From Nitrospirales bacterium (GTDB lineage Bacteria; Nitrospirota; Nitrospiria; Nitrospirales; UBA8639): DNA of 64,000 bases. The stretch covers positions 62,001-126,000 of the forward strand of contig JAAXIB010000014.1 in the NCBI GenBank assembly GCA_012270585.1, given 5' to 3'. This document shows positions 27,827-34,689 of this stretch, one piece after another; position 1 is the first letter of the stretch, and each line of letters opens with the position of its first letter. The notes under the pieces are model-generated. The model had not been told where the DNA came from. It saw only the letters and a list, made by a program, of their open reading frames with translations, and did no database searches. The position numbers and the translations under genes are program-made.

Positions 27827-28062
27827 CTAGCCGTAGCCGAAACCGGTTTGCTAGGATGCGTCTCCCATGGAAATCGGCATTGTCGGGCTTCCCAACGTCG
27901 GCAAATCGACGATCTTTAACGCGCTGACGGCAGGAGACGCGGCCGCGTCGAACTATCCCTTTACCACGATCGAACCGAACCTCGGCGTGGTTCCCGTTCC
28001 CGACTCACGGCTGGCCCGTCTCACGGACCTGTTCAAACCGCAAAAAACGATTCCCGCCTTCT
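27827..28062 (+). repeat. Left copy of 236-bp direct repeat (5' end of ychF)
   Basis: Identical to 34454-34689 except for one base (A at 28007, G at 34634). It covers 40 bp of leader and the first 65 codons of ychF. The match stops abruptly on both sides: the base before it is A here and C in the other copy, and the base after it is A here and G there. The spacing between copies is 6627 bp. The two copies flank the AT-rich defence island. Confidence 0.97.
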
Positions 28063-28093: not shown

Positions 28094-28240
28094 ATGGAAA
28101 AGAATTTAAGAAGAAACGAAGAAATTAGTATCGATGCACTATTCAGCTCTAATGCTCAGCGAATGAGACGAGAGATATGTCTTCCAAAGAAAAAGCTAAT
28201 CCCGCAACATTGTCACGGTTTAGCAAACTGCGACACTTGA
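28094..28240 (+). CDS. Possible 48-residue ORF overlapping the NACHT gene start
   Basis: An ATG with AGGT five bases upstream opens a 48-codon frame ending inside the NACHT gene (62-bp overlap, different frame). The first 34 residues (MEKNLRRNEEISIDAL ... AQRMRREICLPKKK) look protein-like and basic. The rest runs in the NACHT gene's alternate frame. It could be a leader peptide coupling translation of the NACHT gene, the remnant of a small gene, or chance. Confidence 0.25.
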   Translation: MEKNLRRNEEISIDALFSSNAQRMRREICLPKKKLIPQHCHGLANCDT

Positions 28241-30609
28241 TGACATTTTCCGAAGATAAGTTCAGAGATTTGGTTGTAAGGCCTCTGTTCTTGCTTCAGG
28301 GCTTTAAAGATGGACGGGATTTGTGTGGACCTCACGAGCAAGGGAAAGATGCTGTTTTTGTTAAGGCAGACCCCCTGGGCAATGAAGACATTTATGTATT
28401 ACAAACAAAAAAGGGGCCTCTAAACCTTACAAAGAAAGCAAATTCTAACGTAATCGAGGCTGTGACCCAATTGAAGACTGCATTAAACACGAAAGTATTT
28501 CTAACTAAAACCAAAGAGAAGAAATTCCCGATTAAAGCCATCTTGTGTGCTAGTGGAAAAATCAATGATCATGCGCGTCAACATATTGTAGGAGAAGTCG
28601 ACGATCCAAGGATTGAATTCTTAGATGGAGATGATCTGATACCACTTATTGACAAACATCTACAGGAATTTTGGTTAGGGTTGGACGCAGAAGCGCTGCC
28701 ATACCTCAAGCACATCTCTCACAGTATTGAGTCTCTAGATGAGCATCTTACAATTTCTGACCTATTACCGGAAGACCTGACAAGAGGTGCAGCCACGGAC
28801 AAGTTATTTGTTCCTCTTTATTTATATCGAATCGCTACTGAAATTAAGAAGCATAGAGGCAAGGTGAGTCGAACCCCGGAATTCGAAACGATTCCTGTAT
28901 CCGGATTATTAAAAAAACGTGGTGGGAAATTTCTAATACTTGGAGACGCAGGATCGGGAAAGTCCACGTGCGTTAGACGTCTGGCTTACATTCTCGCTCA
29001 AGAGGGACTAAAGAGTTCAGCAGATTATAAATTGCCGATAATGCTTAGAGCATCTCAAGTAGCTGAAGAGATTTCTCAAAAGAAAAAAGAGGGAATAGCT
29101 GGAATTTGCTTGGAGGAGACCAAAAGGTTACTCAACTCATCTACTCCATGTTTTTCCATCAAGGATCTTCATGATGGCAAATTAATGATTTTCGTTGATG
29201 GCCTTGATGAAATTAGCAGTGACGTGTCAAGAAAAAATGTTCTTGATTCTATAGAACACTTTTCGAACCTTTATCCAAATTGCAAAGTACTGATTACCTC
29301 TCGTGACCATCCATCCCTTTTGATCACCATTGGAGAATCCGACTCTTTAAGAGAATATGCCACTTATTTCATTAGTCCGATTGACCTTAAACAGGCTTCT
29401 CAATTAGTTGATAAACTCAGAAAACAGAGAAACTTATCTTCTGAGAATTCAAAAGAAATAATTCGCCGGCTTCAACAAATTCATGGCATGGATTTGAACC
29501 CTCTGCTAGTTACTGTATTTGTTGCCACAAGCGATTATTCAAAGCAAGACATCCCTGCAAACATAACAGAGCTTTTTAAGAAATATGCAGAAATGATGCT
29601 GGGTCGTTGGGACGCAAGTAAAGGTTTAGCTCAACAGTACCATGCCCCGCTCAAGGATTTTATAATTACGAAAATTGCTTATGAAATGCACCGCCGCGAA
29701 GTTACCAATATTGAGCTAGAAGAATTCAAAAAAATAGCTGAAAAGGAATTAGAAAAGCGTGGGCATAGGGGCGATTTCAAACAGGTCACGGAAGAAATAT
29801 TCAGATCTGGTCTATTTCGAGTTTTTGAAAGGAGAATTGAATTTAGACATCTCTTGTTACAAGAATTTTTTGCAGGGAGAGGGATTCCAGCCAAAGAATC
29901 CCTAGAAACATTAGTTTCAAAACATTGGTGGCAAAGGGCCATCGTTTTCTACTTTGGGAATAACCCAAGTGAAATTGGTGGAATTGAGCATATTGTCAAG
30001 ACTACAGACTCAAGGCCATTACCTGAACTTTACACGGCGTCCTTAACTGTAGGATTGGCCTTGCAGGCTTGTTACTTAACTGAAGTTACAGAACGAACCG
30101 CTATATTTAAGTGGGTAATTGAAAACATTTCCAACGCAAAGGAGCCACTACAAGAATATTTAATCCATAAAGGAAGAAAATCACTCTCTGCTTTTCTAGA
30201 TTACTACCTCTTTGGTCGAGACTCTGTTGCTTTGAATTTGCTCAATGATAATTTCAATGAAATTGAAAAGGCTTTGTTAACGCCGACGATGAGTATCGAC
30301 GATAGAGATACAAGAAAATTCTGGCTAATTATTGGTCTAATTGAAAATGGGGATATGGTCAGGGCAGAGGAATTGGTCCAAGAGTTTCGCCCTAATGATC
30401 CTAAATTATTACTAGGTGTCTATCTGGGATGCTCTCTTGTAGAAAATTTACGGATAACTAGCAGATTGAATAAGCAAAAAAGTGAACGTATATGTAAGAG
30501 TCTTAAGGATGAAATTAGAGGCTTGCGTTTGCAACTTATGGACGAATTTAAGTCCGAACTCTTGGAAGTTCAGGAGGGTCAGATTCAAGCAATTCCAAAA
30601 GAAAATTAG
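28177..30609 (+). CDS. Nuclease-NACHT STAND NTPase, putative anti-phage defence protein
   Basis: 810 residues in three parts. Residues about 20-140 look like an Mrr-like PD-(D/E)XK nuclease: an acidic helix near 26, Asp58 in GKDAVF, and Q76-T-K78 in YVLQTKKG. Residues about 235-520 are a NACHT module, with Walker A GDAGSGKS at 255-262 and Walker B FVDGLDEIS (Asp341, Asp344, Glu345). The remainder is helical, with EFRHLLLQEFFAG in the NACHT-associated region and no obvious WD40 or TPR repeats. Bacterial NACHT and Avs proteins sense phage components and then switch on an N-terminal effector. Here the effector would cut DNA. Sensor specificity is unknown. Confidence 0.85.
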   Translation: MSSKEKANPATLSRFSKLRHLMTFSEDKFRDLVVRPLFLLQGFKDGRDLCGPHEQGKDAVFVKADPLGNEDIYVLQTKKGPLNLTKKANSNVIEAVTQLKTALNTKVFLTKTKEKKFPIKAILCASGKINDHARQHIVGEVDDPRIEFLDGDDLIPLIDKHLQEFWLGLDAEALPYLKHISHSIESLDEHLTISDLLPEDLTRGAATDKLFVPLYLYRIATEIKKHRGKVSRTPEFETIPVSGLLKKRGGKFLILGDAGSGKSTCVRRLAYILAQEGLKSSADYKLPIMLRASQVAEEISQKKKEGIAGICLEETKRLLNSSTPCFSIKDLHDGKLMIFVDGLDEISSDVSRKNVLDSIEHFSNLYPNCKVLITSRDHPSLLITIGESDSLREYATYFISPIDLKQASQLVDKLRKQRNLSSENSKEIIRRLQQIHGMDLNPLLVTVFVATSDYSKQDIPANITELFKKYAEMMLGRWDASKGLAQQYHAPLKDFIITKIAYEMHRREVTNIELEEFKKIAEKELEKRGHRGDFKQVTEEIFRSGLFRVFERRIEFRHLLLQEFFAGRGIPAKESLETLVSKHWWQRAIVFYFGNNPSEIGGIEHIVKTTDSRPLPELYTASLTVGLALQACYLTEVTERTAIFKWVIENISNAKEPLQEYLIHKGRKSLSAFLDYYLFGRDSVALNLLNDNFNEIEKALLTPTMSIDDRDTRKFWLIIGLIENGDMVRAEELVQEFRPNDPKLLLGVYLGCSLVENLRITSRLNKQKSERICKSLKDEIRGLRLQLMDEFKSELLEVQEGQIQAIPKEN

Positions 30610-30823: not shown

Positions 30824-31762
30824 ATGATGATGTCCGATAATCCTGACAAACTGCTTGCTGACCAGTTTCGAGAATTAATGCGGCGCTACACCGGTGCCAC
30901 ACCAGATGCATTCATCGATGTTCTTTGCCCCATGTTGATTCCAATTCATAGCATAGACAAGGAGATCAAAAAGATTAGCGGCCAAAACCACTATCGGGCA
31001 TCATTTTCTGCTCAAATTACGGAGGAGAACAAGGGCATACTTTGCAGGGGACGTACAGGCAAGTTTGTACCTAGTCTATTTGCCAGTGGAGGAACTTGGA
31101 GAGAAATCGCAAAAGGCCGAATAATCGAAGTCGATGCTCTGACAAGTTTCGCATTTGGAGAAATATACACCGGAGGGCGGAAGAAGGACCTAGAAAAGGC
31201 ACTTTCAGAACTTTCCTTGGAAGATCTCCTTGAAGTTGATCAATATGGTGCCGCGGCAAAGGTGCTTAGTGGCTTGGCTGAGCATTCACTGGTAAAAAGT
31301 TTAACTGACAGGGGTTATATGGTTCGAAGGATGCCCGAAGATATGGCGAGACATCTTGGAAGTTATCCGAATTATGATTTCGAGGTATCGAAAGGTGATC
31401 AAAGCCGGAGAATAGAGGTGAAATCTCTGTGGGGTACAAACACACGATTTGCCCGGTTAATCCATAGCACGACTTCAAGGCCAAAAGGAGACCCCAGTCG
31501 TTGGACAGAAGAACAGCATCGTTGTTACTATCCGACGAGCAGTTGTAAATTTGCCACGCAAGATATTTTTGCTGTAAGTCTTTTCCTTCGAACCGGTAAT
31601 ATCCGAGATTTTGCATTCGCGCGTTCCGTCCCAAGAGACATTCAGCCACACGGGTTACCAAGGGCTTCAAATTATCCTGAGCACGTCAATCAAAATCCAC
31701 CATGTGCTGTTGGTGATGGATCATGGTTCGATACAATTGATGAGGTATGGGATCTTGCTTAG
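30824..31762 (+). CDS. PD-(D/E)XK restriction endonuclease-like protein
   Basis: About 312 residues; the frame is open from a TTG at 30803, and the ATG run at 30824-30830 with GGGA before it is a better start. Numbered from the TTG, the catalytic set is Glu160 (LAEHSLV helix), Asp192 (NYDFEV) and E205-V-K207 (RIEVKSLWG), a standard PD-(D/E)XK core in the second half. The N-terminal 140 residues are not recognised and may bind DNA or the partner. Its 3' end overlaps the opposing methylase gene by 77 bp. Together they resemble a restriction-modification pair of unusual design. Confidence 0.75.
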   Translation: MMMSDNPDKLLADQFRELMRRYTGATPDAFIDVLCPMLIPIHSIDKEIKKISGQNHYRASFSAQITEENKGILCRGRTGKFVPSLFASGGTWREIAKGRIIEVDALTSFAFGEIYTGGRKKDLEKALSELSLEDLLEVDQYGAAAKVLSGLAEHSLVKSLTDRGYMVRRMPEDMARHLGSYPNYDFEVSKGDQSRRIEVKSLWGTNTRFARLIHSTTSRPKGDPSRWTEEQHRCYYPTSSCKFATQDIFAVSLFLRTGNIRDFAFARSVPRDIQPHGLPRASNYPEHVNQNPPCAVGDGSWFDTIDEVWDLA

Positions 31763-34013
31763 ACGATTTCGCTGTGTGCCAGGACGAGATTAATTGATCA
31801 ACGGACTTTGAGAACATACGTTCTTCCTGGATCAACTTTGATCTCAAATCTCGTATTCTATTTGCCTCTTCTTGAAGCGCATGTATATCTTTTCGCGATA
31901 GAGGGAGAAGAATGTCTAGTAGACATTCTTCGTTAACTGCCGGATAAGCAATTCCTATATTGTTACGAAGAATTTGTTCATTTGCGAAGTCCGATTGAAG
32001 CAACCGTGCGAGCAGGGTTGATTCAATCCTTTTACACTGCAAGACGGCAAAGCCCGTTGAACAAACGGCTTTATCAAGTTCTCGCGGAACGACTCCAATA
32101 GTCCTGCGTTCCGGACGGACAGTGGACACTATTACGTCACCTGTTCTCACCAGCTTCCGCGCACGACTTGGCGCTTGCTCGCATTGAATGGCTTTAGCCG
32201 TAACGCCAAGGGTTCCTGAATCAACATCGGATATTTCAATATAAAAGAAGACAGATGACGCGTTGAACCGCCGGGGGTCTATGCGGGTGGTCGAAAGAGT
32301 TGCAACCTCTCGAACAAATATATCTGTCTCCTTTGGGTTCTCTATCAGGTCTGCAATTTCGTTTGATAAACCGACATGATAAGTAGCATCCCACCTAGGA
32401 ACAGTTGGTGAAATGTTCACTAATCGGCCTATCCATGTTTCACGATCTCGACTGGCCTCTGGCAGAATCTCTACCAGATCGTTTCGGCCCTTCGACACCT
32501 TTTTCCGCAGTGAAGCGCGCGTCGTTATTTCATATCCAACATCGTGGCAAATAGAAAAATAAACTTTGTCCCTGCGCACCATCTTGGTCTTTTTTGTAAG
32601 GTGCAAGACAGATGTTTTCGTCGTCGTTCCCGCTGCTCCAAAGGTCACAGGTGGAAGGGAGATGACTGAGCGAAGTTCTACTCGCGGTGAGAGTCCTGCC
32701 CTCAAATCTTGATAGATGCCGCGGTTCGTTAGAATACTGTCAGGGACGATGGCTATCAGCGTCCCCTCTGGAGTCAACCAGTCGATATATCGCTCCAAAA
32801 AGATTATTTCGGAATCAAGTGTTTTGGGTGTACGACGCAGCCATTCAGACGCTACTTTGTACTCCATAAGGGAAGCCCGCGGAAACTCAGCCCCAAACGG
32901 CGGATTCGTGAGTATCAGTTTTACCTTTCCTTCCAAGCCTGTCGTTATTTCGGCATCAAGCCCTTTCCTAGCTAAAGAATTCGCAAAATGAAGGTTCGCC
33001 GCCGGCGAACCAAAAAGCGCAAGATTAGTCAGGGAAAGACGGATCATCCGTTCACTCTTATCGATTCCTACCAGGACGGAACGGACCATCTTATTAACCC
33101 AATCATCGACACCATCCCTTCCATGCCGTTTAAGCACTTCTATGTGTAATGACTTTAGAACCTCCGTTAAAAAAGAACCAACCCCGCATGATGGGTCAAG
33201 GATTATTCCAAAATTAGAACAATTTGTGGGGTGACAAAGAGTCTCGAAATCTTGCCGTGAGAGCGAGTTGATGCCAAGCCGACTCATAAACCTGACAATT
33301 TCTGTTGGAGTCAGGTATTGCCCCAATTCCTTTTCATCAACAAAGGAATCTGTAAGGAACTGCCCAAAAACGTCATTCAAGATGTCAGCACCATCAGGTC
33401 CAGAGAAACACGCTGGGAATTGGGAATTGGAGATGCCGTCAAAACAAGAAATGATTTCATCCGCGAAAAAGTTTTCTGAATCTTTCAATCGGAGATGAAA
33501 ATCACTTGGTTTCAGTTCATGTGCAAGTGAAATGGGCAGGTGACGGCTATAGATTTTTGATATAAAATCTTTTAGTGCTTTTGCTGGCGATTTCGTATCC
33601 TTGCCTAAAGCAGTTGAAATACCGGGACCGCCGTTTTGTAACGAAATAATATGTGCAAATAACAGCTTAGATATTTCATCTAGTGCTTCATGACGTGAGG
33701 ACAGGCATCCACTTCGATGAAGCGTTTCACGGACTTCTCCTAGAGTAGTAGCAACAACGGAACGAAGATATTCATCGCGTTCGGGTTCGTGCCGGCCATA
33801 AAGAGGTAATGACTCGCAGACCGAAGAAGTAGACATATTTCCTGCTAGTTTTCGTATTTGTCCTTCAATCGAAGGTCGAGGGTGGGTTGTTCCAGAGAGC
33901 CAACGACCTACAGTGGAAGCAGAAACTCCAAGCTTTGCTGCAACGCCTGTTTGTCCAATGGGGTCAGCGGATACAAGTTCTCGTATAAGGATAGGAATAT
34001 CCGGTGTTTGCAT
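31686..34013 (-). CDS. HTH / N6-adenine methylase / type I-like specificity fusion protein
   Basis: 775 residues. Residues 10-60 form a Cro-type helix-turn-helix (GVAAKLGVSASTVGRWLSG). The HsdM-like methylase follows: GQYLTPTEIVRF at 231-242 (motif X), DPSCGVGSF at 273-281 (motif I) and NPPF at 370-373 (motif IV). From about 560 a type I S-like target-recognition half follows, ending in the coiled-coil IRDLRSKLIQEERMFSKSVDQLI. So one chain holds a possible autoregulator, the methylase and the specificity unit. No HsdR helicase gene is nearby. The only nuclease partner is the convergent PD-(D/E)XK gene. Confidence 0.85.
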   Translation of the reverse strand: MQTPDIPILIRELVSADPIGQTGVAAKLGVSASTVGRWLSGTTHPRPSIEGQIRKLAGNMSTSSVCESLPLYGRHEPERDEYLRSVVATTLGEVRETLHRSGCLSSRHEALDEISKLLFAHIISLQNGGPGISTALGKDTKSPAKALKDFISKIYSRHLPISLAHELKPSDFHLRLKDSENFFADEIISCFDGISNSQFPACFSGPDGADILNDVFGQFLTDSFVDEKELGQYLTPTEIVRFMSRLGINSLSRQDFETLCHPTNCSNFGIILDPSCGVGSFLTEVLKSLHIEVLKRHGRDGVDDWVNKMVRSVLVGIDKSERMIRLSLTNLALFGSPAANLHFANSLARKGLDAEITTGLEGKVKLILTNPPFGAEFPRASLMEYKVASEWLRRTPKTLDSEIIFLERYIDWLTPEGTLIAIVPDSILTNRGIYQDLRAGLSPRVELRSVISLPPVTFGAAGTTTKTSVLHLTKKTKMVRRDKVYFSICHDVGYEITTRASLRKKVSKGRNDLVEILPEASRDRETWIGRLVNISPTVPRWDATYHVGLSNEIADLIENPKETDIFVREVATLSTTRIDPRRFNASSVFFYIEISDVDSGTLGVTAKAIQCEQAPSRARKLVRTGDVIVSTVRPERRTIGVVPRELDKAVCSTGFAVLQCKRIESTLLARLLQSDFANEQILRNNIGIAYPAVNEECLLDILLPLSRKDIHALQEEANRIRDLRSKLIQEERMFSKSVDQLISSWHTAKSSKQDPIPHQLYRTMIHHQQHMVDFD

Positions 34014-34048
34014 AAAAATATATTACACGCCGTGAATAGAAAATGCAA

Positions 34049-34453: not shown

Positions 34454-34689
34454 CTAGCCGTAGCCGAAACCGGTTTGCTAGGATGCGTCTCCCATGGAAA
34501 TCGGCATTGTCGGGCTTCCCAACGTCGGCAAATCGACGATCTTTAACGCGCTGACGGCAGGAGACGCGGCCGCGTCGAACTATCCCTTTACCACGATCGA
34601 ACCGAACCTCGGCGTGGTTCCCGTTCCCGACTCGCGGCTGGCCCGTCTCACGGACCTGTTCAAACCGCAAAAAACGATTCCCGCCTTCT
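34454..34689 (+). repeat. Right copy of 236-bp direct repeat (5' end of intact ychF)
   Basis: Same sequence as 27827-28062 with one substitution (G at 34634). Here it continues without a break into the rest of ychF. The upstream neighbour is island DNA, so the intact gene has lost its original upstream region beyond 40 bp. Confidence 0.97.

What the first reader, a model, noticed from the sequence alone, without database searches (positions are those of the whole stretch)
31686..34013. One chain carrying HTH, N6-adenine methylase and a type I-like specificity half
Type I systems keep methylase (HsdM) and specificity (HsdS) separate and use an HsdR helicase-nuclease. Here a Cro-type HTH is fused before the methylase and an S-like half after it, and no HsdR exists. 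The HTH may make the methylase its own repressor, replacing a separate control protein. A single target-recognition half suggests dimerisation to read a bipartite or palindromic site.
Basis: partly seen in the sequence, partly recalled or inferred. Interest (0 to 1): 0.72.

Follow-up and report, generated by a model that had tools for sequence, protein, structure and literature searches.

The report
Self-regulating methylase of a two-gene restriction system
A bacterial gene fuses a DNA-binding switch, a DNA-adenine methylase and one DNA-reading half into one protein; with a neighbouring gene that looks like a DNA-cutting enzyme it forms a small, portable anti-virus system that probably controls its own dose, a new combination of parts already known separately.

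Summary
Window 31686-34013 (minus strand) encodes one 775-aa chain: HTH (~6-58), gamma-class N6-adenine methylase (209-487) and a single HsdS-like half (~563-727) ending in one long helix.

The methylase plus single S-half is not new. It is the published homodimeric gamma-methylase design (M.DrdI, M.XmnI, M.XcmI), which reads interrupted palindromes; the chain aligns over most of its length with the probable M.DrdI. A convergent 310-aa gene (30830-31762, +) has a PD-(D/E)XK-like motif, co-occurs with the methylase in exactly the same 3 of 296 Nitrospirota genomes, and is convergent with it again in three diverged viral or prophage contigs. A distant relative sits next to a fused M-S gene on a Thermus plasmid.

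Self-repression by the HTH is supported. CAYGNCRTG palindromes sit in the promoter region: a pair 35 bp apart in all three Nitrospira, and one overlapping a near-perfect promoter in a 41%-identical relative. Methylase-repressor fusions are known for m5C enzymes (M.SsoII, Ecl18kI, EcoRII); I found none described for this m6A class.

The island (43% GC against 56%) is bounded by a 236-bp direct repeat, with empty sites in congeners. New variant of a known kind.

The parts
31686..34013 (-). HTH-gammaM~S methylase, 775 aa
   Evidence: full-length relatives L023/L024 (94%), L041 (43%), L042 (41%) with the same architecture
33840..33998 (-). HTH domain (aa 6-58)
   Evidence: HTH_3 E=8e-4 here, over cut-off in L041; four helices in the AlphaFold2 model; STxxRW conserved in all five sequences
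32553..33389 (-). gamma-class N6-adenine methylase domain (aa 209-487), motif I DPSCGVGSF (273-281), motif IV NPPF (370-373)
   Evidence: PF02384 E=4e-24; Foldseek best hits BsaXI, StySJI M and EcoKI M
31833..32327 (-). single HsdS-like target-recognition half (aa 563-727)
   Evidence: 3okg/5ybb HsdS E=1e-24 over 572-727; PADLOC Specificity_I 1e-18
31761..31895 (-). C-terminal long helix (aa 707-751), candidate dimerisation helix
   Evidence: AlphaFold2 helix 707-751, moderate confidence, pLDDT about 55-65 over most of it; position as in M.DrdI-type enzymes (PMC3874165)
30830..31762 (+). convergent partner, 310 aa, candidate restriction endonuclease; motif E151 ... D183-x12-E196-V-K198
   Evidence: same 3 of 296 genomes as the methylase; convergent in L041, L042 and L094; E151, D183, E196 and K198 invariant in 5 sequences; Thermus relative beside an M~S gene
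34020..34048 (-). possible weak promoter TTGCAT-17-TAATAT, read by eye
   Evidence: sequence; not reported by the consensus scan, so weak
34023..34037 (.). operator-like quasi-palindrome O2, TTACACGCCGTGAAT (core 34026-34034)
   Evidence: one of 4 sites with 2 or fewer mismatches to TTACACGNCGTGTAA in the 2.5-Mb genome
34061..34069 (.). operator-like core O1, CATGCCGTG, 35 bp from O2
   Evidence: the 35-bp pair is conserved in L023 and L024 and is the only close pair found in 884 kb of held sequence
28177..30609 (+). NACHT ATPase with N-terminal Mrr-type nuclease domain, island passenger, probably a separate defence gene
   Evidence: PF05729 1.7e-11, PF04471 2e-6; internally deleted in L024 while the methylase is kept
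27827..28062 (.). left copy of the 236-bp direct repeat (original 5' end of ychF)
34454..34689 (.). right copy of the 236-bp direct repeat (5' end of intact ychF, ATG at 34494)
   Evidence: 99.6% identical to the left copy; single copy in congeners without the island

Best explanation
A two-gene Type II restriction-modification system. The 775-aa chain is a homodimeric gamma-class m6A methylase: each subunit carries one methylase and one target-recognition half, and two subunits pair through the C-terminal helices in opposite orientation to methylate both strands of an interrupted palindrome. The convergent 310-aa protein is the Type II endonuclease that cuts the same site when it is unmethylated. 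The N-terminal HTH makes the methylase its own repressor: as methylase accumulates, the HTHs of a dimer bind palindromes (core CAYGNCRTG) over the methylase promoter and stop further synthesis, doing the job of a separate control protein. Shown here: domain architecture, conserved gene pairing and convergence, conserved promoter palindromes, purifying selection. Inferred: endonuclease activity, dimerisation, site type, repression.
For: Domains. Full-length alignment to the probable M.DrdI (hhalign E=9e-35 over 576 columns; identified as M.DrdI by elimination), and M.DrdI is listed as 2 gammaM~[GAC] reading GAC N6 GTC (PMC3874165). Partner: exact co-occurrence in 3 of 296 genomes, convergent pairs in L041, L042 and L094 at 53-62% identity, Thermus plasmid pair. 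Operator: pair of CAYGNCRTG 35 bp apart before the gene in all three Nitrospira and nowhere else in 884 kb; the only such site in 9.1 kb of L042 lies just after TTGAAA-17-TATAAT upstream of its methylase; in L024 changes in both arms keep the symmetry. Precedent: M.SsoII binds a 15-bp quasi-palindrome and represses its own gene (PMC3978073; PMC12707154).
Against: No known nuclease family matches the partner (only a sub-threshold NOV_C hit), and its AlphaFold2 model failed (pLDDT 35). HTH_3 is below Pfam's cut-off in this protein. The S half is modelled with low confidence. The palindrome is not found before the L041 methylase, and shuffle tests for L042 against the Nitrospira upstream regions reach the observed similarity in about 1-3 of 150 shuffles for 15-mers. 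The candidate promoter in the window is weak. In L024 the partner gene carries an early stop codon.
Confidence: 0.75

Rival explanations
1. A Type I-like 'IMS' enzyme: the M~S fusion works with an HsdR supplied in trans from another locus, and the neighbour is unrelated to restriction.
For: HsdM-HsdS fusions are functional with HsdR (PMC3510504); two HsdR genes are present in this genome.
Against: Both HsdR loci have their own HsdS; the 310-aa gene, not HsdR, accompanies the methylase in every locus where it can be seen; only one TRD here, while the natural M~S fusion beside an hsdR gene in L006 has two.
Confidence: 0.07
2. The system is as described but the HTH is not an autorepressor: it helps target recognition, dimerisation or DNA loading, or regulates other genes.
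For: HTH is weak by profile here; L041 lacks the palindrome.
Against: Palindromes lie at the methylase promoter in two diverged lineages; N-terminal HTH repressors on methylases are an established arrangement; relatives without the HTH (P0004, P0007) have the same M~S core, so it is not needed for methylation.
Confidence: 0.2
3. The 310-aa partner is not a site-specific endonuclease but another effector or accessory protein; the methylase acts as an epigenetic regulator or antidote to it.
For: No recognised family; AlphaFold2 model unusable.
Against: Invariant E...D-x12-E-x-K pattern fits PD-(D/E)XK, sub-threshold NOV_C hit, distant relative encoded directly upstream of another M~S methylase in Thermus.
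Confidence: 0.12

Closest known systems
Homodimeric gamma-class Type II methylases: M.DrdI (GAC N6 GTC), M.XmnI, M.XcmI (Loenen et al., PMC3874165 Table 3)
   Same: Single M~S chain, one Type I-like target-recognition half, C-terminal helix, partner endonuclease separate; aligns over 576 columns with the probable M.DrdI
   Different: N-terminal HTH fused on; partner family shows no relation to a candidate nuclease gene near the probable M.DrdI gene; specificity unknown
Type IIH / 'Type 1 1/2' systems: AhdI, PshAI, BsaBI (PMC4081073, PMC3874165)
   Same: gamma-methylase with half-S recognition and a Type II endonuclease; AhdI also has an HTH control protein, C.AhdI (PMC3978073)
   Different: In AhdI M, S and C are separate proteins; here all three functions are in one chain
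Dual-function methylase repressors M.SsoII, M.Ecl18kI, M.EcoRII, ScrFI (PMC3978073, PMC3874152, PMC12707154)
   Same: HTH at the methylase N-terminus; 15-bp quasi-palindrome at the promoter
   Different: SsoII and its relatives are C5-cytosine enzymes (PMC3978073; for EcoRII and ScrFI from own knowledge); Ecl18kI genes are divergent, with overlapping promoters, here the genes are convergent
REase + M~S pair on Thermus thermophilus plasmid pTthSNM1-1c (L028)
   Same: Distant relative of the partner gene directly upstream of an M~S methylase (28% identity to P0001)
   Different: No HTH, genes in tandem

Membership tests
Homodimeric gamma-class Type II methylase (M.DrdI type) | gamma order of motifs: SAM motif I then NPP[FYW], then TRD | tested here: met
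   DPSCGVGSF 273-281, NPPF 370-373, TRD 572-727
Homodimeric gamma-class Type II methylase (M.DrdI type) | one TRD per chain, fused C-terminally, followed by one dimerisation helix | tested here: met
   single half matched; helix 707-751 of moderate confidence
Homodimeric gamma-class Type II methylase (M.DrdI type) | acts as a dimer on an interrupted palindrome, m6A on both strands | not testable with these tools
   needs methylome and purified protein
Homodimeric gamma-class Type II methylase (M.DrdI type) | paired with a separate Type II endonuclease | tested here: inconclusive
   partner gene conserved; nuclease activity inferred from motif only
Type I R-M | HsdR helicase-nuclease encoded with M and S | tested here: not met
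   none in the locus or relatives; HsdR elsewhere has own HsdS
Type I R-M | HsdS with two TRDs | tested here: not met
   only the first half of HsdS is matched
Type IIG/IIB (BcgI, BsaXI, AloI) | nuclease domain in the same chain as the methylase | tested here: not met
   N-terminus is HTH plus an unassigned helical stretch; no HSDR_N-type hit, unlike P0005 and P0011
Dual-function methylase repressor (SsoII type) | N-terminal HTH on the methylase | tested here: met
Dual-function methylase repressor (SsoII type) | quasi-palindromic regulatory site at the methylase promoter | tested here: met
   sequence feature present; absent in L041; binding not shown
Dual-function methylase repressor (SsoII type) | repression of own gene shown | not testable with these tools
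   needs reporter and binding assays
Dual-function methylase repressor (SsoII type) | m5C methylase domain of the SsoII family | tested here: not met
   N6-adenine gamma class; so it works like this group but is not a member of that enzyme family
MADS (methylation-associated defence) MAD2/MAD5 | score over NCBIfam equivalog cut-off | tested here: not met
   77.8 against 720 bits and 13.9 against 400 bits

The most novel reading that the evidence does not exclude
A portable restriction-modification lineage in which control protein, methylase and specificity subunit are one chain: the first self-repressing methylase of the m6A gamma M~S class, paired with an undescribed endonuclease family, spread between Nitrospira chromosomes and phages by insertion with long target duplication and as phage cargo.
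Probability: 0.5. Interest if true: 0.55.

Novelty: new variant of a known kind. Interest (0 to 1): 0.45.

Why it matters
A restriction system entering a new cell must make methylase before nuclease. Known solutions are a separate C protein, promoter methylation, or a repressor domain fused to an m5C methylase. This cassette would show that the last solution also arose in the large m6A class related to Type I enzymes, and would place control, modification and specificity in a single chain. It also points to an undescribed endonuclease family whose recognition site could be read from a methylome. None of this changes the general picture of restriction-modification.

Tried and rejected
Type I without HsdR: rejected, because the partner gene and the M.DrdI precedent explain it better. 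Type IIG: no nuclease domain in the chain. MADS: scores far below cut-off. NACHT/Mrr gene as a third component: it is internally deleted in L024 and not beside the pair in L041, L042 and L094, so treated as a separate passenger. Partner identification by profiles, PDB, PHROGs, plasmid and phage searches gave nothing beyond the Thermus relative. AlphaFold2 of the partner on two sequences failed (pLDDT 35). A candidate nuclease gene near the probable M.DrdI gene is not related to the partner. A third CAYGNCRTG inside the methylase gene (33689) reads as coding sequence and was not counted. Predicting the half-site from the TRD was not attempted: the similar HsdS structures were found, but no specificity was looked up for them.

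Full report
WHAT IS THERE. The window lies in a 2.5-Mb genome of a Nitrospira relative (own-genome search; the close relatives are deposited as Nitrospira/Nitrospirales MAGs). The minus-strand ORF 31686-34013 encodes 775 aa. It carries HTH_3 at 21-48 (E=8e-4, below Pfam's cut-off), N6_Mtase at 209-487 (E=4e-24), and a stretch at 572-727 that matches the first half of the HsdS structures 3okg and 5ybb at E=1e-24 and the second half not significantly. AlphaFold2 shows four HTH helices and a C-terminal helix at 707-751; the S half itself is modelled poorly. The methylase fold is closest to BsaXI and to HsdM proteins. Relatives give the HTH more weight: L041 (43% identity) passes Pfam's cut-off for HTH_3, and STxxRW in the HTH is conserved in five sequences.

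THE PARTNER. Convergent with it, sharing 77 nt at the 3' ends, is a 310-aa gene (30830-31762, +). In 296 Nitrospirota genomes it occurs in exactly the three that have the HTH-methylase. Scanning viral contigs found the same convergent pair on IMGVR_3300036668_000513 (L041/L093, between genes that read as phage portal and terminase), on IMGVR_2524614699_000005 (L042) and, cut by the contig end, on IMGVR_3300017987_001930 (L094, beside genes that read as phage tail genes) (the phage gene names are my reading of the translations). Five sequences share an invariant E151, D183 and E196-x-K198 pattern, as expected of PD-(D/E)XK nucleases, with a sub-threshold NOV_C hit. A Thermus thermophilus plasmid carries a distant relative (E=5e-5 pairwise) directly upstream of an M~S methylase without HTH. 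I therefore read the partner as the endonuclease; this is inference from motif and context.

THE METHYLASE CLASS. Loenen et al. [quoted passage not shown] Our chain aligns over 576 columns with the N-6 methylase of plasmid pDrdI. That plasmid encodes M.DrdI and an inactive Type I m6A methylase (PMC6430315); the Type I one is the separate M gene next to a short S gene, which leaves this protein as M.DrdI.

THE SWITCH. In the 80 bp before the gene, the window, L023 and L024 each have two copies of the palindromic core CAYGNCRTG, 35 bp apart. In 884 kb of held sequence, partly redundant, this core occurs about once per 12 kb, and this pair is the only one within 60 bp. In L042, only about 41% identical in protein, the single copy in 9.1 kb lies in TTACATGACGTGTAA, just downstream of TTGAAA-17-TATAAT and upstream of the methylase start. 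In L024 both arms have changed so that symmetry is kept (TGCACG-A-CGTGCA). Against this, L041 shows no such site, the window promoter is weak, and a shuffle test for L042 reaches the observed 15-mer similarity in about 1-3 of 150 shuffles. The motif was read from these same sequences, so the counts support it but are not an independent test. M.SsoII is the precedent: it binds a 15-bp quasi-palindrome through its N-terminal region and represses its own gene (PMC3978073). Methylase-repressor fusions are reviewed in PMC12707154 and PMC3874152. I found no m6A gamma M~S example in the papers searched, which is not proof that none exists.

MOBILITY. The island holding the NACHT/Mrr gene and the restriction pair has 43% GC against 56% for the rest of the window, and is bounded by a 236-bp direct repeat, 27827-28062 and 34454-34689, with one mismatch. 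The repeat is the 5' end of ychF. Of 14 genomes of the genus, the three with the island have two long copies; of the others ten have a full or near-full copy and one has none, with a few further partial or short matches. In four congeners checked, the sequences left and right of the island lie together around a single copy. No integrase is seen inside. This resembles insertion with long target duplication reported for R-M units (PMC3874152, PMC3031569), there of the order of 100 bp. Within-genome copies are more alike (95-99.6%) than between-genome copies (about 89-91%), which suggests gene conversion.

STATE OF THE GENES. dN/dS is 0.18-0.25 for the methylase and 0.16-0.24 for the partner. In L024 the partner has an early stop codon and the NACHT gene is internally deleted, while the methylase stays intact; losing the nuclease before the methylase is the order expected of a decaying R-M system.

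VERDICT. Observation confirmed; interpretation partly supported; the thing is a new variant of a known kind: a DrdI-type M~S methylase with its control protein fused on, plus a probable, undescribed endonuclease.

Noticed in passing
27827-28062 and 34454-34689: 236-bp direct repeat (5' end of ychF) bounding the 43% GC defence island; empty site with a single copy in congeners. Looks like insertion with long target duplication and no integrase.
   Followed up: yes
28177-30609: NACHT ATPase with N-terminal Mrr-type nuclease domain, a likely separate defence gene; intact in L023, internally deleted in L024.
   Followed up: partly
L024 7774-8706: Candidate endonuclease gene has an in-frame early stop at codon 20 while the methylase remains intact.
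   Followed up: partly
31686-31762: The window methylase has lost the TGA stop kept by two relatives (arginine codon instead), adding 13-14 aa and lengthening the overlap with the convergent gene from 35 to 77 nt.
   Followed up: yes
L041 622-7012: The same restriction pair sits between genes that read as phage portal and terminase, apparently as phage cargo.
   Followed up: partly
L033 5052-7781: Acinetobacter plasmid pANC7919.3 has an M~S-like methylase (663 aa) with a convergent 253-aa gene of no known family overlapping its 3' end; possibly another Type II pair.
   Followed up: no
L031 1171-2361: 396-aa hypothetical gene on pDrdI near the probable M.DrdI gene, separated by an IS4 element, with a PD-(D/E)XK-like LEVKAI motif; may be the DrdI endonuclease.
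   Followed up: partly
L102 278-8512: Own genome, contig C48: HsdS, an ATPase gene and HsdR together, a separate Type I locus.
   Followed up: no
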